From an uncultured Bacteroidota bacterium (GTDB lineage Bacteria; Bacteroidota; Bacteroidia; Bacteroidales; 4484-276): DNA of 64,000 bases. Below are positions 1 through 28,584 of this stretch, in pieces (position 1 is the stretch's first letter; every line of letters begins with the position of its first letter). Location: positions 1 to 64,000 of the forward strand of contig CAJATL010000192.1 of the NCBI GenBank assembly GCA_903944895.1, written 5' to 3'. Below the pieces are notes generated by a model. It did not search any database and was not told the DNA's origin. It saw only the letters and a list, made by a program, of their open reading frames with translations. The position numbers and the translations under genes are program-made.

Positions 1-3000
1 GCATCACTGAATACACCTAATCCGCCTGTCCATGCTACAACACTGTAGTTGTCAGCTGTTCCGTCTAACTGAATAGTTGTTTCTTCACATGTACTTGCAT
101 CCGGACCTGCGCTAACATTGGCAAGTTCTGGCTGTACGAAAATAACAACATCATCACTTACAACAAGTGTACAAGGTTCAAGAGCAATTACAGTGACTGT
201 TAGTGTTACATTACCTGTTACACCAACTGCCGGAGTATAAATAGGATCTTCGATCGTAGCATCACTGAATGATCCTGATGGAGCAGTCCATAATAATGAA
301 CTGTAATTAGTAGCTGTAGCATCTAACTGAATGCCTGTTACTTCACAAGTAGATGCATCAGCGCCAGCATTAACTGTTGGAGGAGCAAGAATTGTGAGTG
401 TCATACAATCAAAATAATCCTGAGCACAAGCGGTACCATCAAAAGCATACAGACATAATTGAACTGTGCCTGCCAAAACATCGGCAGCACCAGGAGTATA
501 AATTGCATCAAGAGCAAATTCATCTGGTGAGAAGGCTCCATCACCGGCTGTTGTCCATTCCCATGAATCAGCAAAATCTTCTGAACCATTTAATTGAACT
601 GTTTCACCAGCACAAATAGTTGCATCAGCACCAGCATCAGCAACAGGACGTCTGGTAATATAAATTGTCATAGCATCAACATCAGGATAACAGCATGGGC
701 TTGTTGGGAAAGCAACCATAAATAACTGAACATATCCTAATTCGATATCTCCGGCTCCAGGTGTGTAAATAGGATCTTCGATAATCTGGCTGCTGAAAGT
801 ACCATCACCTTCACCAAGTAAAGCATAATCCCAGAATACACCACTTGAATATGTAGTAGTACCATCTAACTGAACAGTTTCTCCTTCACAAATTGTCTGA
901 TCAGGACCAGCATTTGCTTGTGGGAAATATTGAACAGTGATTGTCATTTGGTCAGTGTCTTCAACCGTACAAGGATTACATGCAATTGCGTGTAATGTAA
1001 GTACAACACTTCCTGCAGCAACATCAGCAGCACTTAAAGTGTAAACTGCACCTGTAGCAAGACTTGGATTTACAAAGGTACCTGTTCCACCGGTCCATAA
1101 ACTTCCACAAGCATTGGTTACTTCACCAGCTAAGGTGTAATATCCATAGGTGAAAGGAGGTTGGCAAAGCATTTCACAGATAGTAGCATCTGAACCAGCA
1201 TCTGCTGATGGTAACAATGTAAAATACAGTGTTAATGATGAAGAAGCTACTTCACAATTTGATAAAGGTTGTACAGTCAGTGTTAAAATAACATTGCCTG
1301 CAAGAATATCACCAGCACTTGGAGTATAGGTTGCTCCTGCTAATGTTGCATCATCAAAAGCACCAGTTCCTGAAGTTGACCAGAGTAAAGTTCCACCGTT
1401 TGCAACGGTAGGATTTGCAGTGTATGTTGCATCTTCACAAATGGTAGCATCGGCACCTGCAAATACTTCAACCGGAGCCTGGAAGCAAAGTTCCATAAAG
1501 TCTTCAGTTGCAAGCGTACAAGGATTCAATGGAGATACTGCAACGCCTAAAGTAACACATCCCTGAGGATAATCAATTGAAGGGCTTGGGCAGTAAACTG
1601 GATATTCGGTTGTTTCATCATCAAAGAAACCACCACCATTGGTAGTAAACCATTGTAATGCTGAGTAATTTCCATAAACTACGTTTGATGCGTTAAAAGT
1701 GAAGCACAATTCGTAGCAAATTGTTGACGAAACAGGAATAATATCAACTGAAGGTAAACCTTGTAAAGTTAATGTCATACAATCCTGGAAGTCAGTAGCG
1801 CAAGGAGCAGTAGGATAAGCATTTAAACAAAGTTCTACCGAACCGTCAAGTCTATCCTGAACACCAGGTGTATAGATTGCGTTTACAGCAAAAGCATCAT
1901 TAAAAGCTCCATCTCCTGAAGTTTGCCACATCTGTCCGTTGTTGTAAGTAACAGATGCACTTGATAAGGTAAATGTTCCATCTTCACAGATAGTACCATC
2001 AACACCAGCATTTGCCAAAGGCAGAGGTTGAATGGTTAATGCCATTTCATCCATTGCTGGGAAATCAGGACTGCAATTCAGGCAAGGTGCACCAATTAAA
2101 GTCAGGTGAATAGTACCTGAAATAACATCCTGTGCACTTGGGGTATAAACCGGGTTAAGGATGGTTTCGTTACTGAAAGTACCTGTTCCATCATAAGTAA
2201 CCCACTGTAAGCCGCAAGTGTTTGCTGCAGTTGCATTAAGTTGTATCGAAGTAAGTTCGCAAATTGTTGCATCTGCACCGGCTGAAACCTCTGGTGCTGG
2301 ATCGAAACAAAGTTGCATTTTATCAAGTTTCCATAATTGACAAGGTTCACATGGATAACCAATCAGAACCAAAGTTACACATCCGGCTGCAAGGTCGCCA
2401 GGGCCGGGAGTATAAATTGGATCAAGTTTTGAACATGGGAAATCGAATGTACCGTCACCTAATGATACCCATACCGTCTGCAGGCAAGGATCAGGACAAA
2501 TGTATTCTGCTTCGCCCTGCATTGTATAGGTTTCGGTTTCGCAAATGGTAGCATCATCTCCTGCATTAACATAAGGAGCATGCATAACGGTTACATCAAC
2601 TGATGCAGTAACCTCATCAATACAAGGAGCAAGAGGAGCAACAGTTAAGGTAAGGGTTACAACAGTACCACCATCCAATACATTAGCAACGTAAGTAGCG
2701 TTTAAAGTATTGGCATTATTAAGATAGCCGAATCCATTGTGGGTCCATTGATATGGACCTACTGAATTATCAACAGTAGCATTTGTTGTGAACTGTTCAT
2801 TTGAACAAATTGTTCCATCATCACCAGGTTCAATTACAGGAAGCATCTGGAAGCAAAGAAGCATCATATCTTCAGCTGTAACAGTACAAGGATCAAGTGG
2901 TGAAGCTGCAATCCATAATTCAACACAATTTTGAGGATAATCAACAGTTGGACTTGGGCAATACTCAGGATTCATTAAAGTTTCATCATTAAAAAATCCA

Positions 3001-3960
3001 CCGCCATTGGTAGTATACCATTGAATAGCTTCATAATTAGTAGCTAAAGCGTCAGCTAAAGTATAGCATTCAAATTCGCAAATGGTTGCGTCAGGGCCAG
3101 CATAAGCAGTTGCAGCCAAGGTAACAGATAATTGATTTGTAGAAATTGCATCGTCACAAGCAACACCATGAACAGTTAATGTAAAATCAATAACTCCACC
3201 AGCAGCAAGGTCATTTGCACCAAAAGTGTAGGTAGGATTAGCAATAGTTGCATCGTCAAACGCACCATCACCAGTTGAAGTCCAAGCGATTACACCACCA
3301 TAATTAACATCAACAGTTACAACTGCATCAGCAAATGTATGACTTACAGCAACGTCTGCACAGTAACTCATAGGGTTACCTGCAAAAGCAGTTGGAGGAG
3401 CAACAAAACAAAGATCAATAAAATCTTCTGCAGATATAGTACATGGGTCAATTGAGGAAGCAGTAACACCTATTATAATACATTGCTGAGGCCAGTCAAC
3501 GGTAGGACTTGGGAAATAGGTAGGATGAAGAATAGTTTCATTATCAAAAAAACCACCTCCATTAACAGTAAACCATTGTAATGCATCATATTCAGCTGCA
3601 TCTACAAATTCGAAATAATATGAATCACCATAGCATACATAATCCAATAAAGGAATTATGTTAATACTAGGATCTTCCTGAATTGTAATATCCATAGCAT
3701 CAGTAACATTACCACATGCAGCAGTAATTGATGTTAAGGTTAGAGTAGCTGTACCAGCCAATAAATCAGCTGCACCAGGTGTGTAAACTGGATTCAGAAT
3801 GGTGGCATCACTAAAAACACCATCACCTAAAGTAGACCATTGCAAAAATAAATAATTTGCAGCAGTAGCATCAGCTAATGAATAGCCAGCTGCACCTGAA
3901 GCACAAAGAGCACCGTCAGCACCAGCAAAAACTGCCGGAGGGCCAACAACAGTAACAGTT
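1..3960 (-). repeat. About 15 tandem ~275-bp coding modules
   Basis: The motif AGADATICE or a variant recurs near 83, 331, 607, 888, 1171, 1431, 1705, 1982, 2252, 2539, 2800, 3074, 3350, 3620 and 3900, a spacing of 248-287 bp. Most modules are type A, with YTPG and L-x-L strand signatures. Three (starting near 3620, 3074 and 1705) are a distinct type B with NGGGFF, CPSPSxDYPQ and EDFMxLCF motifs. Most modules hold paired cysteines. The repeats have diverged at DNA level, so this is an old array and not a recent expansion. Confidence 0.85.
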
Positions 3961-8681: not shown

Positions 8682-8734
8682 ATAAATCTGATGACAACCA
8701 GAACCTAGGAGTAAGAAATTATGTTAAAAAAAAG

Positions 8735-8973
8735 GGGTAAGGCGTAAGGGGTAAGTCATAAGTCGGCAGTTGCCAGTTGGCAGTTGCCAGTTGCCAGTCG
8801 GCAGTCGGCAGTATTACAGCAGGCAGTTTGACGTTGGAAGTTGCCAGTTGCCAGTTGCCAGTTGCCAGTTGGAAGTTGGAAGTTGGAAGTTGCCAGTCGG
8901 CAGTAGGGAGCAGGAAGCAGGCAGTTGCCAGTCGGCAGTTGGAAGTTGCCAGTTGGAAGTTGGAAGTTGGAGG
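8735..8973. repeat. Degenerate 7-bp tandem array, about 34 units
   Basis: The plus strand is read as heptads ending in AG: GGGTAAG, GCGTAAG, TCATAAG, then TCGGCAG, TTGCCAG, TTGGCAG and TTGGAAG in mixed order. The phase is kept for most of the array, with interruptions around 8812-8840. It fills most of the gap between thrS and the PorE-like gene (8640-8997) and resembles the heptanucleotide arrays known between genes in cyanobacteria and other bacteria. Open frames through it are repeat artefacts. Confidence 0.9.
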
Positions 8974-8997
8974 TATGACCTGGGGTTTATCGGAATA

Positions 8998-15539: not shown

Positions 15540-18500
15540 ATGAAAAAACTTTTACTGACGATTTTTACAACCATTTTTTTTCTGGGCGTTATGGCTCAGG
15601 AATACACTGTTACCGGGAGAGTGACCTCCGCAGAAGACGGGCAAAGCCTTCCGAACGTTTCGATATATATTAAAGGTAAGCTTGCAACAGGCACCGTTGC
15701 CGATCTGGATGGAAACTACCGGATTTCCGGGGTGCTGCCCGCTGACTTCCTGGTTTTTAGTTACATGGGTTACGAAACCAAAGAAATTAAAGCCGGTGGC
15801 GAAAAAATCATCAATGTCGAACTGAAGCCCACTGCCCAGCAATTGGATGGCGTGGTAGTAACGGCTCTTGGCATCAAGCGCGAAAAACGTGAAATCGGCT
15901 ACACCACCGAGAGTTTCAAAGGTGAAGACATCGAACGGTCGAATGCGTCAAATGTGATAAACGCTTTAAGCGGAAAATCGGCCGGGGTACAGGTTACCGA
16001 GCCTGACGGCGTTGAAGGCGGGACTTCGAGAATTACCATCCGTGGAAACAACAATCTCGAAAGCAACAACCAACCGCTGATTGTTGTTGACGGAGTGCCC
16101 CTCGAAAATTCACCGGGACTCGACAATATCGGGCGCGGACAGGACTGGGGTTCGGCGATCAACAACATCAACCAGGCAGATATTGCCGATATCAACATCC
16201 TGAAAGGACCAACAGCATCGGCTTTGTATGGGTCGCGTGGCTCAAACGGCGTAGTTCTGATCACCACAAAACGCGGCAAAAAACAAAAAGGAATTGGCGT
16301 AACCTATAATTCGACCTATAAAATTATCACCCCTTACCGTTACCGTTCGGTTCAAAATGTTTATGGTGCCGGAGGGCCGCTTTCCCTTTCTGAACCTACT
16401 TTTCAACAAGACAGTACCGGAACCTATCTTTATCCGTCGTCCGTTCATACCGACAATGGCCCTTTCGGGAAACCCACCACCGAATTGTTTGGATATTACG
16501 GAACAGCCGCTTCATGGGGCCCAAAAATGGACGGCCAGATGGTAAAATGGTGGGATGGCGAAATGCGTCCATGGTCGCCGCAACCCGATAATCTTAAACT
16601 TTATTTTGATAACGGCAGCACTTTCACCAATAATATCGCATTTTCTGGAGGCAGCGAAATGGGCACAATCCGGGCATCACTCACCAGAACTGACCATAAA
16701 CCCATCATCCCAAACAGCAGTTACGACCAAACGACCATCAACATTGCCGCTAATATTAATGTCTCCTCAAAAGTAAAAGCAGATTTCTCGATCTCTTACA
16801 TGAATTATAACCGCCTCAACAGTCCGAATATTGGAGAGTCGTACAGTTCGTTCAGCAAAGGTTCGCTTTATTCATGGCCACGAAGCTGGAAAGGTCTGGA
16901 AGCCGAAAATTATGCAAATCCGGATGGCTCGCTCAACGAATGGGGCGGAAATTATCCGTTTCAATACATTTCGCCCAGCACATGGTGGGATATTTATAAA
17001 AACAACACCACCCTTGCCAGGGATAAACTTTTGGGCGCTTTTACACTGACTTACGAAATTACGCCCTGGCTTAGCGCGATGGGCCGGCTTGGTATCGATT
17101 TTACCTCCGACCAGTTCGAAACCCGGAATAGCCCAACCGATATTGCCGGTTTGATAAACGGATATTATCAGAATGAACTTTCGAGGGATAAAGTGGCCAA
17201 TAACGAATTCCTGATTACAGGCCATAAGGAAAAGATTTTTGATTCCAAACTCAACGCCAGCCTGTCGTTTGGCGGAACACACTGGCAAAGGCGGCAATAT
17301 CTTATCCGCGGGAAGTCGGGCACCTGGGTTGACCCCTGGCTTTATTCGATGGGAAATTACGAAGACCCCGAACAAATTACCTACACCGACCCGAATTATC
17401 GCCGCGAAGACCGCTACGAAAAAGACATTAATTCGCTGTACTCCTTCTTAAATCTGGGTTACGATAATTACCTGTTTTTGGAAATGACCGGACGAAACGA
17501 CTGGTCATCAACCTTACCAGAAAATAAAAACTCCTATTTCTATCCTTCGGTTTCGTTGAGCTTTATCCCCACCGAGGCGTTTAAAATGAATATTGGATGG
17601 CTCAACTTCTGGAAAATCAAAGGTTCCATTGCTGGCTCAGCTTCCGACACCGATCCTTACGAGCTGGATTTTGTGTACACCTCGGGGAGTTTTGGCGGCA
17701 GCCAGACCGCGTCGTTGCAGACAACCATTCCACCCATCGAACTTGCACCGCAAAACGCCAAATCCTACGAGGCAGGCACCACACTTGGTCTTTTTAACGA
17801 CAGGTTAAGTTTTGACTACACCTATTATTATATAAAATCCGACAACCAGATTCTTTCATCACCGGTACCTACCTCGTCGGGAGCATACAAAATCAAGATT
17901 AACAACGGCGTTCTCGAAAATAAAGGCTTCGAAATTATCTTAAACTATGTAATTATCAACAGGCCAGGTTTGGTTTTTGAAACCGGATTAAACTACAGCC
18001 ACAATCGAAATCTGGTCGTTAGCCTTGGCGAAGGCGCCGACCTGCTTGAGCTTGCTGACATCTGGGGGTTGAATGGCCCGGCCATAGCCGTAAGAGAAGG
18101 CGAAGATTATGGCACCATTATCGGCTACGATTATGTGTATCACGAAAACGGCCAGCCAATCCTGAGCGATGATGGCACCACCTATAAAATTACCGAAAAC
18201 CGCGTACCTATCGGCAATGCGTCACCCGACTTTCTGGGTGGCTGGACAACACGCCTCACCTGGAAAGGATTTTCGCTCACCACACTCGTTGATACAAAAT
18301 GGGGTGGCGATATTTATTGCGGCTCCCAGGTTACCGGGCTGCAAACCGGCCAAAGCCCCGAAACGCTCGTCGAGCGCGAAGGTGGTGGTCTGCCCTACAC
18401 CGACCCTGACGGCGTTACACGAAATATCGGCGTGATACTTCCCGGTGTTTACGAAGACGGAACGCCCAACGATAAAGTGGTTCATTATTACTTTAAATAC

Positions 18501-18803
18501 ATGCCCAATGCGGGAGGATGGGGAAAATTCCTTTCGACACCCGGAATTATGGAAAACTCCTGGGTAAAAATGCGTGAAATTTCGCTGAGCTATAAATTGC
18601 CCAATTCCGTTATCGAAAAGACAAAAATCTTCCAGGATTTAACGCTGACGGTGGTTGGAAGAGACCTTTTCTATTTTTATTCCTCGCTTCCCAACAAAAT
18701 TAACCCCGAAGGATTGATTGGTTCTGGAAATGCGCAAGGCCTCGAATGGGCTTCATACCCGGGCACAAGGTCGGTTTCGTTTGGAATTTCAGCATCATTT
18801 TAA
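15540..18803 (+). CDS. SusC/RagA-type TonB-dependent transporter
   Basis: This 1,087-residue outer-membrane protein is expected to import an oligomeric ligand with its SusD partner, driven by TonB. It has a signal peptide (MKKLLLTIFTTIFFLGVMA), a carboxypeptidase-regulatory-like domain (about 22-100; GRVTSAEDGQSLPNVSI), a TonB plug (about 110-235; VVVTALGIKREKREIGY, LSGKSAGVQVT, IVVDGVPLENS, GPTASALYGSRGSNGVV) and a beta-barrel ending in an aromatic-terminated strand (SVSFGISASF). I place the start at ATG 15540, because a TTG two codons upstream adds nothing to the signal peptide. It begins a four-gene plus-strand operon (SusD 27 bp downstream). Confidence 0.96.
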   Translation: MKKLLLTIFTTIFFLGVMAQEYTVTGRVTSAEDGQSLPNVSIYIKGKLATGTVADLDGNYRISGVLPADFLVFSYMGYETKEIKAGGEKIINVELKPTAQQLDGVVVTALGIKREKREIGYTTESFKGEDIERSNASNVINALSGKSAGVQVTEPDGVEGGTSRITIRGNNNLESNNQPLIVVDGVPLENSPGLDNIGRGQDWGSAINNINQADIADINILKGPTASALYGSRGSNGVVLITTKRGKKQKGIGVTYNSTYKIITPYRYRSVQNVYGAGGPLSLSEPTFQQDSTGTYLYPSSVHTDNGPFGKPTTELFGYYGTAASWGPKMDGQMVKWWDGEMRPWSPQPDNLKLYFDNGSTFTNNIAFSGGSEMGTIRASLTRTDHKPIIPNSSYDQTTINIAANINVSSKVKADFSISYMNYNRLNSPNIGESYSSFSKGSLYSWPRSWKGLEAENYANPDGSLNEWGGNYPFQYISPSTWWDIYKNNTTLARDKLLGAFTLTYEITPWLSAMGRLGIDFTSDQFETRNSPTDIAGLINGYYQNELSRDKVANNEFLITGHKEKIFDSKLNASLSFGGTHWQRRQYLIRGKSGTWVDPWLYSMGNYEDPEQITYTDPNYRREDRYEKDINSLYSFLNLGYDNYLFLEMTGRNDWSSTLPENKNSYFYPSVSLSFIPTEAFKMNIGWLNFWKIKGSIAGSASDTDPYELDFVYTSGSFGGSQTASLQTTIPPIELAPQNAKSYEAGTTLGLFNDRLSFDYTYYYIKSDNQILSSPVPTSSGAYKIKINNGVLENKGFEIILNYVIINRPGLVFETGLNYSHNRNLVVSLGEGADLLELADIWGLNGPAIAVREGEDYGTIIGYDYVYHENGQPILSDDGTTYKITENRVPIGNASPDFLGGWTTRLTWKGFSLTTLVDTKWGGDIYCGSQVTGLQTGQSPETLVEREGGGLPYTDPDGVTRNIGVILPGVYEDGTPNDKVVHYYFKYMPNAGGWGKFLSTPGIMENSWVKMREISLSYKLPNSVIEKTKIFQDLTLTVVGRDLFYFYSSLPNKINPEGLIGSGNAQGLEWASYPGTRSVSFGISASF

Positions 18804-18830
18804 ATCATCAAAAATCTAACAATTTCGAAG

Positions 18831-20408
18831 ATGAAAAATATCGCCATAAAAATCATAGTTCTCAGCTCCGTTTTATTTCTGACATCTTGTGAAAAGAATT
18901 TTGGAGATCTGAATAAAAATCCGTTCAATCCTACCGAAACCAGCATCGGACCGCTTTTTAACAAGGTGGTTCAATCGCTGCAACTGGGCTGGAATGAGCA
19001 GTTTTATGTTCACAATGAAGTTTTGTACAAACAAACCCAGTTGGCCGCCCTTACCAACGAAGCCTGGTCGAACCTGAGCATCGGCACCGAGGATATCTGG
19101 TCGAATTATTACATCACCCTGGCTCACATCCGCGACATCGAAAACAGGCTCGATGCAATGGAAAACCCCGATCAGCCCGATTCGTTGAACAATGTTCGGG
19201 GGATGGTTAAAATTTTGACCGCCTATAAAACTTTCAGGGTTACCGATCTTTTTGGTGATATTCCGTTTTTTGATGCAGGAAAAGGATTTCTGGGCACCGA
19301 ATTTCTTCGTCCAAAATTTGACAACCAGGAAGATATTTATTATTTTTTGCTCGCCGAACTGAAATGGGCTGCCGAAAATATGAGCGCCCTTCCTAATACT
19401 CCGGATGGTGGTAAATATTACAGCATCGGCGAATACGATAAGCTTTTCAATGGAAACATCTCAAAATGGATAAAATTTGCAAATTCACTGCGTTTGCGCC
19501 ATGCCATGCGGATTTCGGAAGTTTCGCCGGATAGCTGCGCCAAAATTATTACCGAAATTTTCGACAACAACCTGCCAATCATCAAAGAAGGCGAAGATGT
19601 TTTTATGATGCCGCAGGCGCTAAGCTGGGTTAAGGAAAGTACAAGCTGGTCCTTCCGGGAACACAAAAACCTGCGGATGGGTTCAAATATCTGGCACCAG
19701 ATGTCGGAAAACGACAGCACCGACGGCAGCGGTATCTTCGACCCACGGACTTTTATCTTTTTCGAGACCACCAACGACGATGAATGGGTGGCCTTTCCTC
19801 AGATTCCAGACGCCAACACTCCCGCTTCAGGCGGTGTGCCTTACGGTCTTCACCGCGACGACAATTACAGCATCAAAGGAGCCGACTGCATTTTTTCCCC
19901 TTTTAATTATTATCTTATCAGGGATCAAAATACGGTTCCTGAAATTTTGATGACTTCGGCAGAACTTCACTTTATCAAAGCTGAAGCCTTTTTCCGCGGA
20001 ATTGGACTTCCTCAAAGTGAAGACGATGCTGCTGCCGAATATTTTGAAGGCGTGATAGCTTCGATGGATTTTTGGGAAAATGTAATGCTGAGTTCAACAA
20101 TCTGGCAAAATGTAGCACCAGGTTATGAAGGCACCAACGGTTTTGACGTAGCAAACCTCATATTTTTCACCGAGGACAAACTCAAACTCATCATCACACA
20201 GCAATGGATCGATCACTTCAGGCAGCCGTGGGAAGCATTTTGCCTGACCCGTCGCACCGGGCTTACACCACGCGAAGGCGAACCGCTGAACTATTACAGG
20301 CTGCCTTATCCTCCGTCGGAGGCCGAGAATAATCCTGAAAACTGGTCGGCACAGGTGGCAAAAATGGGTGGCGATTTAACGACTGTAAAAATGTGGCTGA
20401 TGAATTAA
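18831..20408 (+). CDS. SusD-like substrate-binding lipoprotein
   Basis: The 525-residue protein starts with a lipoprotein signal ending LTSC (C20) followed by EKNFGDLNKNPFNPTE, typical of SusD/RagB proteins; the body motifs (TAYKTFRVTDLFGDIPFF, KWIKFANSLRLRHAMRI, DPRTFIFF, AELHFIKAEAFFRG) suggest the SusD-like group 2 branch. It is surface-exposed and forms a lid over the SusC channel to capture ligand. Twenty-seven bp separate it from SusC and 27 bp from the next gene. The adjacent PNGase F-like enzyme suggests a glycan or glycopeptide ligand. Confidence 0.94.
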   Translation: MKNIAIKIIVLSSVLFLTSCEKNFGDLNKNPFNPTETSIGPLFNKVVQSLQLGWNEQFYVHNEVLYKQTQLAALTNEAWSNLSIGTEDIWSNYYITLAHIRDIENRLDAMENPDQPDSLNNVRGMVKILTAYKTFRVTDLFGDIPFFDAGKGFLGTEFLRPKFDNQEDIYYFLLAELKWAAENMSALPNTPDGGKYYSIGEYDKLFNGNISKWIKFANSLRLRHAMRISEVSPDSCAKIITEIFDNNLPIIKEGEDVFMMPQALSWVKESTSWSFREHKNLRMGSNIWHQMSENDSTDGSGIFDPRTFIFFETTNDDEWVAFPQIPDANTPASGGVPYGLHRDDNYSIKGADCIFSPFNYYLIRDQNTVPEILMTSAELHFIKAEAFFRGIGLPQSEDDAAAEYFEGVIASMDFWENVMLSSTIWQNVAPGYEGTNGFDVANLIFFTEDKLKLIITQQWIDHFRQPWEAFCLTRRTGLTPREGEPLNYYRLPYPPSEAENNPENWSAQVAKMGGDLTTVKMWLMN

Positions 20409-20435
20409 TTGTCGCTTAAAAAAAACATCAAAATT

Positions 20436-21245
20436 ATGGAAAGAAAGTTCAAAAAAATATCCGGAACAGAGGCTCACAAAACCATTCGCTTTATTGGTGG
20501 GATTTTCTTCATTTCTATTATGGCTTTTATCATGAGTTGTTCTAAAACTGCAGATCCTGCAACCACCGACCCCGACGAAATTGATAACGGTGTGCCATGC
20601 CCCGAAATGCCAACCATCACTTATCATGGACAGGTTTATCACACCTTAATTATAGGTGAACAATGCTGGCTCAAGGAAAATCTCAACATTGGAGCGATGA
20701 TCAACACCCTCGATACCTTGCAGAATGATTCGATCGTCCAGAAATATGGTTATAAAAACGATACTGCAAATTGCAGTATTTACGGCGGTTTGTACACATG
20801 GCACGAAATCATGGAATATTCCGCCGACACGGGCAGCCGGGGAATTTGTCCCGAAGGCTGGCACATTCCTTCAGACGAAGATTGGAAAATTCTGGAAGAA
20901 ACCATGGATAACCATATTATCGATAGCGTTGCCGGATGGGACACCACAGGCTGGCGTGGTTCGGATGCCGGCGGGAATTTGAAAAATATGGGAACTAAAA
21001 AATGGTTCAACCCAAATACCGCTGGTATCGACAGCAAAGGTTTTAGAGCGCTTCCCGGTGGTTTCAGAAATTTTGAAGATGGCAGTTTTGACAAATTACA
21101 AAGCACGGCTTTCTTCTGGACTTCAACGGCAGCAAGCGATTCGGCTGCCTGGTACCGGATGTTTTCGTACACCCACGCCGATGTTTACAGGAGTTACAGC
21201 AAAACTACAAATGCTTTTTCGGTAAGATGCCTGAGGGATCAATAG
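20436..21245 (+). CDS. FISUMP-domain lipoprotein
   Basis: The 269-residue protein has a lipoprotein-type leader (FISIMAFIMSC) and one Fibrobacter succinogenes major-paralogous (FISUMP) domain covering about residues 55-269: motifs YHTLIIGEQCWLKENLN, IYGGLYTWHEIMEY, GICPEGWHIPSDEDW, GFRALPGGFRN and FFWTSTAA, ending SVRCLRD. The fold is common in cell-surface proteins of Bacteroidota and Fibrobacter and has no firmly known activity. Its place directly after SusD is where surface glycan-binding proteins are usually encoded, so a ligand-binding role is plausible but inferred. The start is ATG 20436; an upstream TTG adjoining the SusD stop is less likely. Confidence 0.88.
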   Translation: MERKFKKISGTEAHKTIRFIGGIFFISIMAFIMSCSKTADPATTDPDEIDNGVPCPEMPTITYHGQVYHTLIIGEQCWLKENLNIGAMINTLDTLQNDSIVQKYGYKNDTANCSIYGGLYTWHEIMEYSADTGSRGICPEGWHIPSDEDWKILEETMDNHIIDSVAGWDTTGWRGSDAGGNLKNMGTKKWFNPNTAGIDSKGFRALPGGFRNFEDGSFDKLQSTAFFWTSTAASDSAAWYRMFSYTHADVYRSYSKTTNAFSVRCLRDQ

Positions 21246-21287
21246 AAAAATAATTTTAAAATAATTTCTTAACTAAAACTAAATAAC

Positions 21288-23804
21288 ATGAAAAATTTTT
21301 ACACAAAATTCAGATGGCTGCTTCCGGTATTATTACTGATGCTGCCTTTTTTTATCAAAGCACAAACCAACCAGTACCTGCATTTCGACAAGGTTGACGA
21401 CTATTGCAAACTGGACAATGCCTCACAGTACATCGCAAACTCCACTGCCATTTCGATGACCGGATGGTTTTACTGCGATGCGTTGGCCTACGGCCAGGGT
21501 ATGATGGGTCTTCGCGGCACTGACGCAGGATTTTATTTAATTCAGCTAAACGGTGGTGTTGTCGAATGCCGGTTTATTACAGCAACAGGCTTTTTTGAGT
21601 TCGTTGCACCTGCAAACAGCACTGTGCCGCAGGTTTGGCAACATTGGGCGTGGATTTACGACGGAAGTACCGTAAAACTCTACATCGATGGCATCATGAA
21701 AGGGAGCGTGGCTGCAAACGGCTCCATTAATACCAGTACAGTTTCGTTTGGAATTGGCAAAAGTATTATCGGAAGTTTCAACTTTGTGTATGGAGGAAGA
21801 ATTGACGAAGTGACTTTGTGGAACAAAGCCTTGACCCAGAATGAAATCCTCGATATGATGGACAACGAACTCAACGGAAATGAAGCCGGCCTGCAGCTTT
21901 ACTACAAATTTAACCAGGGCGTCCCTGGTGGGAATAACACCTCCATTACCCAATTAATTTCCGAAACCGGCGGTGGTGCCCGCGATGCTGACTTATTCAA
22001 TTTTGCACTTGTTGGCGAAACTTCCAATTTTGGTGGCGACCTTAATCCGGGATTTCAGGCCATCACCTTCCCACCTATCCCAAACAAATTAACGTCCAGC
22101 CCACCTTTCGCACTTGAAGCATCTGCCAGCTCCGGATTGCCGGTTGTTTTTCAGATTGTTTCGGGACCTGCAACATTAAACGGAAATATGGTGACATTAA
22201 CCGGCGTACCAGGAGAAGTTACCGTTAAAGCCAGTCAGCCTGGAAACGGAACTTTCGACCCTGCCGAAGACCTTTTCAATACTTTTCAGGTAATCGATCC
22301 GCAGCAAAATGTTCCGGATATCGAAGCCCGAAATCCGCTGCCCGGCAACGTTTATGTGCCTGACCTCGATTTTATCCAGCTTGCAGCCATTTCGACAATT
22401 GAATATCCTGAACTTTTTTCGATTTCAAATTTGGTTTTCGTGGTAAATGGGCAAACCATCGAACCCGAATACTGGGGAGACGGACATTTTATTGCCTGGT
22501 GGTCGCCACCCGCTTACGGAAGTTACACCGTGAGTATCGTTTCGACGAATAATTTCGGAGCCGCAGCAACCGAAAACGTTAACATCAATGTTGTGGCGCA
22601 GGCAAGCGATATGCAAGTTTTGGCTGTTGATGATGTCTGGCTGAATGTGGATATAAATTCGGTGACCGTTGATGGAGAATTACCTTCATTTTGCGGGGCT
22701 TTCGATCAGATTACTGCTACTTTGGAGGTGAACTGCCCAAGCGGCGGATGTGGTGAATGGGACCGCGTTGCCAGCATTGACGCCAGAGGAAAAGACGGCA
22801 AATGGTTCGAGATTATCCGTTACATCACACCTTACGGCGTGGCCTGCTCGCACTCCATCGACCTGACTGATTACGCGTCAATTCTTCAGGGGAAAGTTTC
22901 TTTCCGCCTCAATTGCGCCACTTTGGATAATGGCTATCTTTACGATTTAACCTTCTTTTATAAGGCCGGAACTCCTGCTCACAAATACAGCTCGGTAAGC
23001 CGGCTCTGGAACGAAATCTATCCTTTTGGTGATCCTGCCAACCTGCAACCTGTCGAAAATATCGATTTTTCGTTTCCTTCAAATGCGGCCGCTGCAACCC
23101 TCAAACTGATTTCAACCGGTCATGGCTGGGGAGACAACAACACCGGAAATGCTGCCGAATTTCATCACGACATCCACCACGTTTGGGTAAATGGACAGGA
23201 AACTTTTACACAGGACAACTGGCAGGATTGCCAGCCCAATCCTGATGCATGCCAGCCACAAAACGGAACCTGGTTTTACGACCGCGCCGGCTGGTGCCCG
23301 GGAGCTATCGCCCATTGGTTCGATTTTAATATGAGCCCGTATCTCAGCAGTCAGAATGTTGAATTAGGTTATATTTTCGATGAAGATTACATTGATTTGT
23401 GCCATCCAAATAATCCGGATTGCGTTTCAGGCGTAACCTGCCCGGACTGCAATGATGGCTTTAATCCAAACCTTGTGGTCGCCAGTAACCTCGTGGTTTT
23501 TGCAGATAGTCCGGTTGAAAATGCCTTCATTGTTGGCGTTAATAACGGGCCGGTAAAATCGCCGACTACCTTTAATGTTGCACCAAATCCAACCAACGGT
23601 GTTGTTGAAGTTTCGGTAAAAGGCGCTGCCAACTCCGGTGATGCCATTTTACAGGTTTACAATCTCACCGGCAAAATGATGCAGCAAATCGAATGGAACG
23701 GACAAAGCACTTCGATCGACCTTTCATCGTACAATAAAGGCATGTATCTTTTTAAGATGCAGTCGGATAATAAGGTCGAAATTAAAAAAGTTGTTTTGAA
23801 GTAA
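21288..23804 (+). CDS. Secreted PNGase F-like amidase with LamG and T9SS tail
   Basis: The 838-residue protein has a signal peptide (cut after KAQ, residue 26), a LamG/concanavalin-like domain (about 27-215), Ig-like segments (about 250-440), a two-domain region resembling peptide-N-glycosidase F (about 440-740) and a T9SS type A sorting domain (about 762-838; VAPNPTNGVVEV, YNKGMYLFKM, KVVLK). PNGase F cleaves N-glycans from asparagine. Shared marks are CGEWDR (D492, matching catalytic D60), ITPY, GHGWGDN, AAEFHH (E624, matching E206) and DRAGWCPG. The residue matching E118 seems not to be Glu, so activity is uncertain. Last gene of the SusC-SusD operon (42 bp after FISUMP); a strong terminator follows. 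Confidence 0.88.
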   Translation: MKNFYTKFRWLLPVLLLMLPFFIKAQTNQYLHFDKVDDYCKLDNASQYIANSTAISMTGWFYCDALAYGQGMMGLRGTDAGFYLIQLNGGVVECRFITATGFFEFVAPANSTVPQVWQHWAWIYDGSTVKLYIDGIMKGSVAANGSINTSTVSFGIGKSIIGSFNFVYGGRIDEVTLWNKALTQNEILDMMDNELNGNEAGLQLYYKFNQGVPGGNNTSITQLISETGGGARDADLFNFALVGETSNFGGDLNPGFQAITFPPIPNKLTSSPPFALEASASSGLPVVFQIVSGPATLNGNMVTLTGVPGEVTVKASQPGNGTFDPAEDLFNTFQVIDPQQNVPDIEARNPLPGNVYVPDLDFIQLAAISTIEYPELFSISNLVFVVNGQTIEPEYWGDGHFIAWWSPPAYGSYTVSIVSTNNFGAAATENVNINVVAQASDMQVLAVDDVWLNVDINSVTVDGELPSFCGAFDQITATLEVNCPSGGCGEWDRVASIDARGKDGKWFEIIRYITPYGVACSHSIDLTDYASILQGKVSFRLNCATLDNGYLYDLTFFYKAGTPAHKYSSVSRLWNEIYPFGDPANLQPVENIDFSFPSNAAAATLKLISTGHGWGDNNTGNAAEFHHDIHHVWVNGQETFTQDNWQDCQPNPDACQPQNGTWFYDRAGWCPGAIAHWFDFNMSPYLSSQNVELGYIFDEDYIDLCHPNNPDCVSGVTCPDCNDGFNPNLVVASNLVVFADSPVENAFIVGVNNGPVKSPTTFNVAPNPTNGVVEVSVKGAANSGDAILQVYNLTGKMMQQIEWNGQSTSIDLSSYNKGMYLFKMQSDNKVEIKKVVLK

Positions 23805-23839
23805 AATAACGGATGTTTTCGTTTATCGAAGGTTCGATC

Positions 23840-23875
23840 AAAAAGCAGGTGGTCTTCGCCTGCTTTTTGTTTTTC
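23840..23875 (+). terminator. Intrinsic terminator of the SusCD-PNGase operon
   Basis: AAAAAGCAGG and CCTGCTTTTT form a 10-bp perfect stem around a 9-nt loop, followed by GTTTTT. It lies 36 bp after the PNGase-like stop. Confidence 0.88.
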
Positions 23876-23991
23876 AGATTTAAATAAAAAATAGCACTAC
23901 TAACCGGATAAAGTTATTAAATCATCCCGAAATCCTTGATTTCATTAATCCTCCAGATGGCGGATATTCTTAAATTGAGGGTGTACTTTTC

Positions 23992-24094
23992 TCTACAATA
24001 CTTTATCTCTGCCGGCTGGCGGGGAATTCGCCGTAGGCGATAAAGTATTGTAGAATAATGAAATACGATAGTTTTAATATTCCCCGTAGGGGAT
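23992..24094. repeat. REP-like palindromic pair with compensatory stems
   Basis: A 16-bp perfect inverted repeat (TCTACAATACTTTATC at 23992-24007, complement at 24039-24054) encloses a GC-rich centre. Within it CGCC-GTA-GGCG (24029-24039) is followed by ATAAA, and 43 bp on a second copy, TCCCC-GTA-GGGGA (24081-24093), is also followed by TAAA. The two units share ATTC before and ATAAA after, and differ in the stem by matched changes on both sides. The rest of the 375-bp gap (23805-24179) holds only the terminator; no gene is seen. Confidence 0.8.
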
Positions 24095-24179
24095 AAACAA
24101 TTTAGTCGGTCAGTTGTGATAAAAAATAGTACAATAATTTTAAAGAAGTTATTCCTCAATTGTTAAGCCTGATTTATCC

Positions 24180-26270
24180 ATGAAAAAACCATTTATTATT
24201 ACTTTCCTGATTTTTTGCTCCATTTTTACCTGGGGACAGGAATACACGCAGTTTTTTACGAAAGAAAAAACTGTGGTTGACACATTTTTTCAAAGTTATC
24301 TTATCGAAGATAAATATCGCTGGCTTGAAGACATCGATAGCCAGGAAACCAAAGACTGGATTGAGCAGCAAAATACTTCGGGTAAAAAATATTTATCAAA
24401 AGCTGTAAATAATGCAAATTCGCGTAGTTCGATTGACAGGTATGCCTTCTCGGAGCATCATCATCCCAAAAAAATGGGCGATTACTATTTTACTTATGCC
24501 TTTTACAACAACATCAGCGTTCGAGCACTCTTTTATCAAACATCACTCAACGATTATGCACAAATTTTGGTTGACCCTAATTTTATCTCTCAAAAAGACG
24601 AAATCAACCTGAGTGGATATGCCGTTTCGAAAAATTCGAAATTATTAGCTTACCAGTTCACCAGAAATGGAAGTGATTGGAATGAAATAAAAGTTGTTTC
24701 GCTCAAAACCGGTATTCATAAAGACGACCATCTTACAGGAATAAAATTTTCAGGAATTTCATGGCTGGGAGATGGGTTTTTCTATTCGACGGTTTCGCAA
24801 AACGGACAATTTGGAGAAACACGCGGCGAAAAGGTTTTTTTTCATAAAATCGGCGACGAACAGCAATTGGATAAGCTTATTTTTGAAAGAAAAAATAATC
24901 CATCAGCATCATTTGGGTACCTTACAACTTCTGATGAACGCTTTTTTATTCTTACAGAAAATGTAGGCAAGAAAGACCTGGTTAATTTCTTTTACATTGA
25001 TTATGAAGCCGAATCCCCGACCTTACAACCTTTGCTTACAAACCTGACGAAATATAATATTGAAATTATCGATAGCCACGAAGGCAAATTTATTGCCACC
25101 GAAACCAGTGTTTCCAATAATGGAAGTATTTTAGAGATTGATCCTGCAAACCCGCTTAAATGGCGGGCAATTGCTCACGAATTTTCAAAGTCGCTTTTAC
25201 TAAACGTTATTCCTTTTGATGACCGGATTGTTGCAGTTTATCAGGCTGACCAACACCCGATTATTTCGGTTCTGGATTATGCAGGCACAGTTCTGGATAA
25301 CCTCGAGCTACCGCTTGCCACTTCAGTGGGCGGATTCAGCGGAAATTCCTATGATGAAGAACTGCTTTTTGAATACACCTCCTACACCATCCCGCCAAAT
25401 GTTTTCAAATTTAATATCCGGACATTTAAACTTGAGGTCACCAAACAAACCACCGTTACGTTTGATTTTGAAAACATCGAGTACAAAGAAGTCGAATGTA
25501 TCACAAAAGATAGTGTGGTGATTCCCATGATTCTGGTGTACGAAAAGGGATTAAAATTAGATGGTACAAATCCCGCAATAATAAAAGCGTATGGCGGATT
25601 TAATGTTGTTTCGCCGCCTTCGTTTGATCCTGGAATTGTTTATTTTATCAAGCAAGGAGGGGTTTTTGCATTTGCCAATATCCGCGGTGGTGGTGAGAAA
25701 GGCGAAGAATGGGCATTTGAAGGGCGGGGAGAGAACAAACAAAATTCGTACGACGATTTTATTGCAGCATCCGAATTTCTGATAGAACACAAATACACAA
25801 ACAAAGGAAAACTTGCTTCAACGGGTGGTTCAAATGGAGGGCTTGTTGTTGCTGTTGCTGCCATTCAGCGGCCTGATTTATATAAAGTGGTAGTTCCTGT
25901 TGTGGCACCTTTTGACATGTTGAGGCTCGAAAAATTTACTGTGGGCCATTTTAATACCGGCGAATTTGGCACAGTGACAGACAGCATCAGTTTTACCAGG
26001 CTCCTCAGTTATTCTCCCTACCAAAACATCAAAGAAACTGTCAATTATCCGGCAATGTTAGTTATAACCTCCGAAAACGATGACCGTGTTCCACCATTTA
26101 ATTCGTACAAATTTGTTGCCCGCATGCAAAGCAGGAAGGCGCAGCAAAACCCAATTATTTTAAAAATTGAAGCGGATGCCGGCCACTACGGCGCAAGCAC
26201 CTTGAGCAAAAAAATGAAAAAAAAAATTGACGTTTATGGGTTTATTGTTAATGAACTAATGGGAAAATAG
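24180..26270 (+). CDS. Prolyl oligopeptidase family serine peptidase (S9A)
   Basis: The 696-residue enzyme has a signal peptide (MKKPFIITFLIFCSIFTWG), an N-terminal stretch typical of the family (DKYRWLEDIDSQETKDWI), a seven-blade propeller (about 75-420) and an alpha/beta-hydrolase domain. The catalytic triad is visible: S551 in TGGSNGGL, Asp at 634/635 in ENDDRVPP, H669 in ADAGHYG. It cleaves short peptides after proline, here probably in the periplasm. It follows the SusCD-PNGase operon behind a terminator and a 375-bp gap, so it is a separate unit, but with the amidase and fucosidase it suits glycoprotein use. Confidence 0.95.
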   Translation: MKKPFIITFLIFCSIFTWGQEYTQFFTKEKTVVDTFFQSYLIEDKYRWLEDIDSQETKDWIEQQNTSGKKYLSKAVNNANSRSSIDRYAFSEHHHPKKMGDYYFTYAFYNNISVRALFYQTSLNDYAQILVDPNFISQKDEINLSGYAVSKNSKLLAYQFTRNGSDWNEIKVVSLKTGIHKDDHLTGIKFSGISWLGDGFFYSTVSQNGQFGETRGEKVFFHKIGDEQQLDKLIFERKNNPSASFGYLTTSDERFFILTENVGKKDLVNFFYIDYEAESPTLQPLLTNLTKYNIEIIDSHEGKFIATETSVSNNGSILEIDPANPLKWRAIAHEFSKSLLLNVIPFDDRIVAVYQADQHPIISVLDYAGTVLDNLELPLATSVGGFSGNSYDEELLFEYTSYTIPPNVFKFNIRTFKLEVTKQTTVTFDFENIEYKEVECITKDSVVIPMILVYEKGLKLDGTNPAIIKAYGGFNVVSPPSFDPGIVYFIKQGGVFAFANIRGGGEKGEEWAFEGRGENKQNSYDDFIAASEFLIEHKYTNKGKLASTGGSNGGLVVAVAAIQRPDLYKVVVPVVAPFDMLRLEKFTVGHFNTGEFGTVTDSISFTRLLSYSPYQNIKETVNYPAMLVITSENDDRVPPFNSYKFVARMQSRKAQQNPIILKIEADAGHYGASTLSKKMKKKIDVYGFIVNELMGK

Positions 26271-26380
26271 CTTGCGATAAAAACCGATCATCTTTCACCC
26301 ACATTTGATTTTCAGATTTAAAGTAAATTTGGTTTCAAAATGACATCGAAAAATTTCTAATCACTGAATTTGAACAGACT

Positions 26381-27943
26381 ATGATGAAACACATTCTCAC
26401 AATCAGCCTTTTACTTCTTTTTGGAATTTATCTTCCGGCTCAGCATTTTCAACCGCAAAATCAGCAATTCGTCATGATTTTGCCCGGTGAGCCCGTTGAT
26501 TCGATCATCGCTAAAGCAGCGCACGTAACGCCTTCAAAAAAACAGTTGGCCTGGCAGGAAATCGAGTTTGCCTGTTTTATTCATTTTGGGGTGAACACAT
26601 TTACAAACCGCGAATGGGGGACAAAGGAGGATGTGCGCCACCTTTTCAATCCCACCCAACTTGATGCCCGGCAATGGGCAAAAACAATCAGCGAAGCCGG
26701 TGCAAAAGAGCTTATTCTGGTTACCAAACATCATGACGGATTTTGCCACTGGCCTACAAAATTTACGGATTACTCCGTTAAAAATTCACCCTGGAAAAAT
26801 GGTCAGGGCGATCTGGTTGCCGATGTTGCCGCAGCCTGCAAAGAATTCGGATTAAAATTCGGTGTTTACCTTTCGCCCTGGGACATCCATTCGCCAGTTT
26901 ATGGAAGCGAGGCTTACAACGAATTTTTCAAAAACCAGTTGCGCGAATTGCTCACCAATTACGGCGAAATTGCCGAAGTTTGGTTTGATGGCGCCTGTGG
27001 TGAAGGTCCAAACGGACAAAAACAAGTGTACGACTGGAACGGATATTATGAGGTGATTCACGAACTTCAGCCAGAGGCTGTAATCGCCATTATGGGCCCG
27101 GATGTGCGGTGGGTTGGGACCGAATCGGGCTATGGCCGGGAAACCGAATGGAGCGTAATTCCGGTTTCGGCGAATCAGTTGGCTGAGATTGCGGCATCAT
27201 CCCAGCAAAAAGATGTCGGCGGTGCATTTGTGCCAATAGACATGATGCAGGCAGATCTTGGCAGCCGCGAAAAAATAATCAATGCCGGTGCGCTGATGTG
27301 GTACCCTGCAGAAGTGGATGTTTCGATTCGTCCGGGTTGGTTTTATCACGAAAATGAAGATTCTTTGGTAAAATCACCCGAAAAACTGGTTGATATTTAT
27401 TTTAGTTCCGTTGGCCGGAATGCCGGTTTACTCCTCAACCTACCGCCCGATAAACGCGGATTGATCCATGAAAATGATGTGAAAAGTTTGCTTGGGATGA
27501 AAGCCATTTTGGATAAGACTTTTGATAAAAACCTGGCCAAAAATGCCCGCATTGTTGCAACAGAAAATCAGGACGGAAAGTCCCCGGAATTATTATTAGA
27601 CGGTGATTCCAGAACTTTTTGGACCACCAAACCCGGCACAAAAACCGCAATCTTGGAATTTACCTTGGATGATCAACAGGAATTTGATGTGTTGCTGCTT
27701 CAGGAAAATATCACGAACGGGCAACGGTTTGAAGAATTTTCGCTCGAAGTTTTTAAAGATGGAGAATGGATTGAACTGACCAGAGGAACCACGATTGGTT
27801 ACAAAAGACTTTTAAGATTTGAGACAACAACAGCTTCAAAAGTCAGATTAAAAATCATTTCTTCGCGCGATTGCCCGGAGCTTTCAGAATTCGGGTTGTT
27901 TAAATCATCAATCCCAGTGAGTAATTCAAACGAAACTTATTAA
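26381..27943 (+). CDS. Secreted GH29 alpha-L-fucosidase
   Basis: The 520-residue enzyme has a signal peptide (ISLLLLFGIYLPAQ), a GH29 catalytic barrel (about 50-390) and a C-terminal discoidin/F5-8 type C carbohydrate-binding module (about 395-512; LLLDGDSRTFWTT, KVRLKIISSRDCPELSEFGLF). Family marks are ACFIHFGVNTFTNREWG, TKHHDGFCHWPTKFTDYSV and EVWFDGACG, whose D203 is the expected nucleophile. The acid/base is not fixed in position in this family and I do not assign it. It removes terminal L-fucose, a common cap on N-glycans, fitting the PNGase F-like gene nearby. TAAATTTG (26324-26331) upstream could be its -7 box. Confidence 0.94.
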   Translation: MMKHILTISLLLLFGIYLPAQHFQPQNQQFVMILPGEPVDSIIAKAAHVTPSKKQLAWQEIEFACFIHFGVNTFTNREWGTKEDVRHLFNPTQLDARQWAKTISEAGAKELILVTKHHDGFCHWPTKFTDYSVKNSPWKNGQGDLVADVAAACKEFGLKFGVYLSPWDIHSPVYGSEAYNEFFKNQLRELLTNYGEIAEVWFDGACGEGPNGQKQVYDWNGYYEVIHELQPEAVIAIMGPDVRWVGTESGYGRETEWSVIPVSANQLAEIAASSQQKDVGGAFVPIDMMQADLGSREKIINAGALMWYPAEVDVSIRPGWFYHENEDSLVKSPEKLVDIYFSSVGRNAGLLLNLPPDKRGLIHENDVKSLLGMKAILDKTFDKNLAKNARIVATENQDGKSPELLLDGDSRTFWTTKPGTKTAILEFTLDDQQEFDVLLLQENITNGQRFEEFSLEVFKDGEWIELTRGTTIGYKRLLRFETTTASKVRLKIISSRDCPELSEFGLFKSSIPVSNSNETY

Positions 27944-27972: not shown

Positions 27973-28584
27973 ATGAAAAAAATCGTAGCCATAGTGTTGT
28001 TGATCTTAACCTCAGTCCCGATATTTTCTCAGGAAGATTCGACAATGCGCAAAAATGAGGATATAGAAATTTTTGTCTTAGTCGAAAGTATGCCACAATT
28101 TGTCGGTGGAGAAGAAGCCTTGCAAAAGTATTTAATTACCAATGCCATCTACACAACATCAGCACTTAAAGACGGTTCATCAGGCACTGTTTATGTGACT
28201 TTTGTTATTGACGAAAATGGGAACATTGTCGAGCCAAGGATTTTGAGAGGGGTACATCATGATTTAGATAGTATTAGTTTAAGAATGATCAAAAATATGC
28301 CTCCCTGGATTCCGGCAAAACTAAGAGGAAAGCCTGTAAAATACCAGTTTAATCAGCCGGTTAAATTTACACTTAGCCAAAATCCTGGTTTAAAAACTCC
28401 CCAGCCATCGGATTACTGGGCTAAAAAAGGGAAAAAGTATTTTAATCAGAAATGCCTGGAAGAACATGATAAAAGTCAGGCCGAATGTGATTGCTGGTAC
28501 GAATTTATCCTTTGGAACTATAACAATTACCGGCTTGATGATCTTGATCTGAAAATGATATTTGAAAAACAGAAGTGCGAATAA
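27973..28584 (+). CDS. Exported TonB C-terminal-domain protein
   Basis: The 203-residue protein has a signal peptide ending FSQ (residue 20), a TonB-C domain (about 35-138; QFVGGEEALQKYL, GTVYVTFVIDENGNIVEPR, MPPWIPAKLRGKPV) and a tail of about 65 residues with four cysteines (KCLEE, ECDCWYEF, KQKCE). Normal TonB proteins have an N-terminal membrane anchor and a long Pro-rich linker; this one has neither, so it cannot span the periplasm as an energy transducer. It begins 29 bp after the fucosidase stop and may be co-transcribed. A sensor or regulatory role at outer-membrane transporters is possible but unproven. Confidence 0.85.
   Translation: MKKIVAIVLLILTSVPIFSQEDSTMRKNEDIEIFVLVESMPQFVGGEEALQKYLITNAIYTTSALKDGSSGTVYVTFVIDENGNIVEPRILRGVHHDLDSISLRMIKNMPPWIPAKLRGKPVKYQFNQPVKFTLSQNPGLKTPQPSDYWAKKGKKYFNQKCLEEHDKSQAECDCWYEFILWNYNNYRLDDLDLKMIFEKQKCE

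What the first reader, a model, noticed from the sequence alone, without database searches (positions are those of the whole stretch)
15540..27943. Possible N-glycoprotein utilisation locus
SusC, SusD, a FISUMP lipoprotein and a T9SS-exported PNGase F-like protein form one tight operon. A secreted prolyl oligopeptidase and a GH29 fucosidase follow. Together they could bind glycoprotein, release N-glycans, remove fucose and cut the peptide. There are no other glycosidases or regulator here, so it is unlike classic glycan loci.
Basis: partly seen in the sequence, partly recalled or inferred. Interest (0 to 1): 0.65.

Follow-up and report, generated by a model that had tools for sequence, protein, structure and literature searches.

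The report
Conserved surface N-glycan release-and-import operon

Summary
The genes described are real, at the stated place. The evidence redraws the unit.

(1) The core is SusC–SusD–(FISUMP)–PNGase F-like, 15540-23804. It ends at a strong terminator-like hairpin (23839-23869) that is identical in a congener.

(2) It is conserved across the phylum. In the 80 best of 355 relatives of the enzyme (50-91% identity; Bacteroidales, Saprospiraceae, Chitinophagales, Flavobacteriales), an orthologous SusD lies beside the enzyme in 67. A hairpin plus T-run follows the enzyme stop in 40/87 cases, against 0/61 after SusC and 3/67 after SusD.

(3) The prolyl oligopeptidase and GH29 fucosidase lie beyond the terminator. 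The peptidase is missing in the congener; GH29 lies directly downstream only in this genus.

(4) The enzyme keeps the PNGase active site: W-D-R, H, E and R, with D, E and R invariant in 90/90. The residue that blocks core α1,3-fucose in PNGase F is not conserved (Ala here). The model's best solved matches are PNGases.

(5) Some relatives have a LacI-type regulator, and 9-10 of about 70 have a matching palindromic operator upstream. Neither is found beside this copy.

Most likely it is a minimal deglycosylate-and-import operon for N-glycans. What the transporter carries is unproven; peptide import remains a live rival.

The parts
15540..18803 (+). SusC/RagA-family TonB-dependent outer-membrane transporter (1087 aa)
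   Evidence: TIGR04056 559 bits; orthologues at 54-92% with a clear step down to 32-36% full-length paralogues in the family; best solved relative BT2264, 401 bits by profile
18831..20408 (+). SusD-like outer-membrane lipoprotein (525 aa)
   Evidence: PF12771 and PF12741; lipobox LTSC by eye; orthologue beside the enzyme in 67 of 80 loci
20436..21245 (+). FISUMP-domain lipoprotein, likely surface accessory protein; optional part of the operon (mechanical ORF starts at TTG 20409)
   Evidence: PF09603/TIGR02145; lipobox IMSC by eye; present between SusD and the enzyme in G003, G004, G008, G009, G011 but in only 3 of 80 named loci
21288..23804 (+). PNGase F-like protein (838 aa): LamG module, Ig-like part, PNGase catalytic domain (about 440-745), T9SS sorting domain
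   Evidence: PF13385, PF09113, PF18962; PNGase F by phmmer 6e-24; model matches 1pgs, TM 0.83 by target length; W491-D492-R493, H612, E624, R666
23839..23869 (+). Intrinsic-terminator-like hairpin that ends the operon
   Evidence: 14 pairs then TTTTT; identical in congener L047; same position favoured in relatives, 40/87 vs 0/61 and 3/67
24180..26270 (+). S9A prolyl oligopeptidase; neighbour, not part of the conserved operon
   Evidence: PF02897 + PF00326, best PDB 3iuj; absent at this place in congener G003; next to the enzyme only in L101 of 80 loci
26381..27943 (+). GH29 alpha-L-fucosidase, subfamily-B-like; genus-level neighbour outside the terminator
   Evidence: PF01120; best PDB 4zrx and 3mo4/3ues alpha-1,3/4-fucosidases; directly downstream only in L047 of 80 loci

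Best explanation
A self-contained 'release and import' operon. SusD and, in this family, a FISUMP lipoprotein sit on the cell surface over the SusC channel. The PNGase F-like protein is exported by the type IX system, is perhaps held near its targets by its LamG module, and cuts the GlcNAc-Asn bond of N-glycoproteins. The freed N-glycan is taken up whole through SusC/SusD by TonB energy, and dispersed enzymes such as GH92 mannosidases trim it in the periplasm. Shown: gene content, operon limits by terminator pattern, conservation of the SusC-SusD-enzyme unit across the phylum, PNGase fold and active-site residues, T9SS domain. Inferred: amidase activity, surface location, glycan as cargo, order of steps.
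For: SusD orthologue beside the enzyme in 67 of 80 loci with nothing else recurring in more than 8; reverse test 5 of 6 clear SusD orthologues in other orders; terminators after the enzyme; distance matrices correlate, PNGase-SusC r 0.60, SusC-SusD 0.92; active-site residues and fold match the shared features of tested PNGases (PMC12381499); LacI-type regulators, usually sugar-responsive (own knowledge), and a matching operator in part of the family; all 9 order-sample genomes with a full-length enzyme have GH92 vs 76 of 110 others, p 0.043, uncorrected for relatedness; own genome has 8 GH92 matches.
Against: No activity data. SusC is nearest in sequence to a peptide importer. No glycosidase travels with the operon. 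The window copy has no nearby LacI gene or operator. In G001 LacI-SusC-SusD-FISUMP exists without the enzyme, and one clade has the enzyme without SusCD.
Confidence: 0.5

Rival explanations
1. The transporter imports peptides. The PNGase strips N-glycans so that proteins can be cut up, and SusC/SusD takes in the deglycosylated or still glycosylated peptides.
For: SusC scores twice as high against peptide importer BT2264 (401 bits) as against any other solved SusC. BT2263-64 and RagAB carry peptides (PMC7782687). A prolyl oligopeptidase lies nearby here and in L101.
Against: An enzyme-free SusC paralogue is just as BT2264-like. SusD is least like BT2263 among its hits and nearest glucan- and chitin-type SusD-like proteins. 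Peptidases are not conserved neighbours. LacI-type regulation in part of the family suggests a sugar signal.
Confidence: 0.25
2. The PNGase-like protein is not an N-glycanase but uses the same fold and residues on another amide-linked or glycan substrate, for example a bacterial or algal surface polymer.
For: Only about 25% identity to PNGase F over the domain. The Glu118 position is variable and no residue aligns with Trp120. It occurs in free-living Bacteroidota whose natural substrates are unknown.
Against: The residue pattern shared by diverse tested PNGases is kept; PNGases tested from non-mammal sources did release N-glycans (PMC12381499).
Confidence: 0.17
3. One reading: all six genes form one functional N-glycoprotein locus with deglycosylation, defucosylation and peptide cutting.
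For: All genes lie on one strand. PNGase and GH29 do associate elsewhere, including a fusion protein in G006.
Against: Terminator and a dispersed repeat between the enzyme and POP; POP missing in the congener; GH29 directly follows only in this genus; the GH29 is of the Lewis-type subfamily.
Confidence: 0.08

Closest known systems
Group 2 PNGase genes of gut Bacteroides, including the B. sartorii PNGase whose only neighbours are a susC/D pair (PMC9522356)
   Same: PNGase F-superfamily enzyme next to a SusC/D pair; position of PNGase F Glu118 not acidic (Gly there, Ala here), which in group 2 fits acceptance of core alpha-1,3-fucose
   Different: Group 2 has an N-terminal bowl-like domain and a type I signal sequence and is often orphan or in richer loci; this one has LamG and T9SS domains and a fixed operon across the phylum. 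Relationship of the SusC/D pairs could not be tested.
PNGaseDo of Draconibacterium orientale and PNGaseL of Flavobacterium akiainvivens (PMC12381499)
   Same: T9SS-exported PNGase F-superfamily enzymes of environmental Bacteroidota; PNGaseDo also has three extra beta-sheet modules
   Different: The paper calls most of its six genes orphans and names no SusCD; whether PNGaseDo belongs to this family could not be tested as its sequence was not at hand
PNGase F of Elizabethkingia meningoseptica (1pgs/1pnf)
   Same: Fold, Trp59-Asp60-Arg61, Glu206 and Arg248 equivalents
   Different: His for Trp191, Ala for Glu118, extra LamG, Ig-like and T9SS domains
Peptide importers BT2263-64 and RagAB (PMC7782687)
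   Same: SusC is closest to BT2264 among solved SusC structures
   Different: SusD only distantly similar to BT2263; an enzyme-free paralogue is equally close

Membership tests
PNGase F superfamily | Two eight-stranded beta-sheet catalytic module | tested here: met
   AlphaFold model, top PDB matches are PNGases, 1pgs TM 0.83 by target length; active-site loops 615-667 modelled poorly
PNGase F superfamily | Aromatic-Asp-positive motif, His (or Trp) and Glu around the first GlcNAc | tested here: met
   W491-D492-R493, H612, E624; D and E invariant in 90 of 90; features as in PMC12381499
PNGase F superfamily | Release of N-glycans from glycoprotein or glycopeptide | not testable with these tools
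   needs a bench assay
Type I PNGase (PNGase F-like specificity) | Glu or Asp at PNGase F position 118 | tested here: not met
   Ala544 by alignment; G 27, E 16, A 13, S 9 in the family; alignment is uncertain in this loop
Type II / group 2 PNGase | N-terminal bowl-like domain | tested here: not met
   the N-terminus is a LamG domain followed by an Ig-like part
Type II / group 2 PNGase | Gly at PNGase F position 118 | tested here: not met
   Ala in the window protein, Gly in 27 of 90 relatives
Polysaccharide utilisation locus | SusC/SusD pair | tested here: met
Polysaccharide utilisation locus | Co-regulated glycoside hydrolases next to SusCD | tested here: not met
   only an amidase is conserved; GH29 lies beyond the terminator and is not conserved
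Polysaccharide utilisation locus | Linked sensor-regulator | tested here: not met
   none beside the window copy; LacI-type in some relatives
BT2263-64/RagAB peptide importers | Peptide as cargo, or clear clade membership of SusC and SusD | tested here: inconclusive
   SusC nearest BT2264, SusD not near BT2263, paralogue control equally close; no tree with characterised pairs was possible
GH29 subfamily B alpha-1,3/4-fucosidase (neighbour gene) | Closest solved relatives and the catalytic Asp/Glu of that subfamily | tested here: met
   4zrx 498 bits, 3mo4/3ues 434 bits against about 98 bits or less for the classical alpha-L-fucosidase entries; VWFDG and RETEW align with the relatives' motifs; the roles of the two residues are from own knowledge

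The most novel reading that the evidence does not exclude
A phylum-wide minimal importer module in which one T9SS-exported LamG-PNGase frees N-glycans, including core alpha-1,3-fucosylated plant, algal or invertebrate types, and a dedicated SusCD lineage imports them whole, under a LacI-type regulator in part of the family. It would be a compact route for environmental Bacteroidota to harvest glycoprotein glycans.
Probability: 0.42. Interest if true: 0.65.

Novelty: new variant of a known kind. Interest (0 to 1): 0.5.

Why it matters
N-glycan use by Bacteroidota is known mainly from gut species with enzyme-rich loci or orphan PNGases. A recurrent three-gene unit in aquatic and sediment lineages gives a compact, testable model for glycoprotein harvesting, a source of PNGases that may accept core α1,3-fucose, and a case where the cargo of one SusCD class (glycan or peptide) can be settled.

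Tried and rejected
SusC and SusD against solved structures to assign the cargo: inconclusive, as the paralogue control gave the same answer. Neighbours of the nearest SusC paralogues: another SusD-like_2, a second TonB-dependent receptor and proteins of unknown function, no cargo hint. FISUMP fold: model too poor to use, mean pLDDT 44.7. LacI operator near this window's SusC: none at 2 or fewer mismatches; the AACCGGTT at about 15404 is not conserved in relatives. Literature: no paper found that describes this operon; only openly licensed papers were searchable. Recurrent extra genes: genes between SusD and enzyme in L119 and L126 gave no shared family.

Full report
OBSERVATION. The ORFs are intact and correctly named. 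SusC 15540-18803, SusD 18831-20408, FISUMP lipoprotein 20436-21245 and PNGase F-like protein 21288-23804 follow each other with gaps of 27, about 27 and 42 bp. Then come a 375-bp gap, a prolyl oligopeptidase (24180-26270), a GH29 fucosidase (26381-27943) and a small TonB-domain protein (27973-28584).

OPERON LIMITS. A 14-pair hairpin with TTTTT follows the PNGase stop (23839-23869) and is identical in the congener L047. Over the related loci such hairpins lie within 200 bp of the enzyme stop in 40 of 87, of the SusD stop in 3 of 67 and of the SusC stop in 0 of 61; shuffled sequence gives fewer than one in each set. A dispersed repeat lies between the terminator and POP (23993-24053). The transcription unit is therefore most likely SusC-SusD-FISUMP-PNGase.

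CONSERVATION. Ten of twelve genomes of the family have PF09113 proteins. Nine relatives show SusC-SusD-PNGase in synteny; five of these (G003, G004, G008, G009, G011) have FISUMP between, as here. In the congener G003 the POP is missing and GH29 follows the enzyme directly. A scan of named genomes found 355 relatives; the best 80 (50-91% identity) span Bacteroidales, Saprospiraceae, Chitinophagales and Flavobacteriales. SusD orthologues sit beside the enzyme in 67 of 80. No other neighbour family occurs in more than 8 loci; that one is a LacI-family regulator. GH29 is directly downstream only in L047, POP only in L101. In the reverse test, five of six clear SusD orthologues outside the order have the enzyme next door. 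Full-length relatives occur in about 9 of 119 genomes of the order, so the spread is patchy. The enzyme tree puts most SusCD-less copies in one clade of eight, mainly Flavobacteriaceae (the 'o' flags of WIN, L047, L068 and L077 there only reflect the FISUMP gene in between). Distance matrices of the three proteins correlate; part of that is shared organism history. SusC orthologues (54% identity or more) are clearly set off from the nearest full-length paralogues in the family (32-36%).

ENZYME. The 838-residue protein has LamG, Ig-like, PNGase and T9SS sorting parts. phmmer finds PNGase F (6e-24). The AlphaFold model (mean pLDDT 81.8, active-site loops poor) has PNGases as its top PDB matches, including PNGF-II, the plant/insect-active 7zgn and a zebrafish lysosomal PNGase. 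PMC12381499 describes the shared active site as aromatic-Asp-positive/aromatic, His (Trp in PNGase F) and Glu. Here these are W491-D492-R493, H612 and E624, with D492, E624 and R666 invariant in 90 of 90. Glu118, which excludes core α1,3-fucose in PNGase F (PMC9522356), aligns with Ala544 and is variable in the family. Core-fucose tolerance is a prediction, not a result.

REGULATION. LacI-type genes precede SusC in L049, L050, L054, L055, L061, L082, L101 and L190, and one lies divergent to an enzyme pair in L099. The palindrome CTAAAYNNRTTTAG lies within 350 bp of the first operon gene at one or no mismatch in 9 of 69 loci (10 with L084), against 0.2% of AT-rich background segments. Four of these helped define the motif. 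The independent ones include rearranged operons where the enzyme comes first (L114, L121, L124). The window copy has neither regulator nor operator.

TRANSPORTER. Solved-structure scores do not fix the cargo. SusC is nearest BT2264, a peptide importer (PMC7782687), but so is an enzyme-free paralogue, while SusD is nearest glucan- and chitin-type SusD-like proteins and farthest from BT2263.

NEIGHBOURS. GH29 is subfamily-B-like and POP an ordinary S9A enzyme. PNGase and GH29 do associate elsewhere: G006 has a PNGase-GH29 fusion beside a second GH29. The genome has eight GH92 matches. In the order sample all nine genomes with a full-length enzyme have GH92, against 76 of 110 others (p 0.043, not corrected for relatedness).

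VERDICT. A minimal deglycosylate-and-import operon, a new variant of the SusCD plus PNGase arrangements noted in gut Bacteroides (PMC9522356, B. sartorii). Activity and cargo are inferred, not shown.

Noticed in passing
L022:7278-11954 (G006:C27): A fusion protein with an N-terminal PNGase F domain and a C-terminal GH29 alpha-fucosidase, beside a second GH29 and an MFS transporter.
   Followed up: partly
L190:2857-9931 (G001:C58, same stretch as L173): LacI regulator-SusC-SusD-FISUMP orthologues without a PNGase gene; a GH109-like oxidoreductase follows instead. The genome is only about 64% complete.
   Followed up: partly
window 23993-24053: A 61-bp imperfect palindrome between the terminator and POP with similar copies at more than 20 places in the genome, like a small dispersed repeat element.
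   Followed up: partly
window 8725-8988: A run of 14-nt-spaced repeats built on AGTTGCC/AGTTGGA next to the threonyl-tRNA synthetase gene.
   Followed up: no
window 1-3500: Diverged long repeats (about 270-550 bp spacing) on what looks like a long coding region running off the window start.
   Followed up: no
G000:C356 (L021:7034-10501): A second, 1155-aa PNGase F-domain protein with LamG and T9SS domains elsewhere in the genome, next to a Tex-like gene and with no SusCD.
   Followed up: partly
L064, L067, L082, L099, L100, L108, L114, L121: Tandem duplications of the PNGase gene within or beside the operon, some highly diverged at about 40% identity to the window protein.
   Followed up: no
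upstream of the operon in L050, L061, L082, L083, L084, L101, L114, L121, L124, L190: Candidate LacI-type operator CTAAAYNNRTTTAG, found also where no LacI gene is adjacent.
   Followed up: yes
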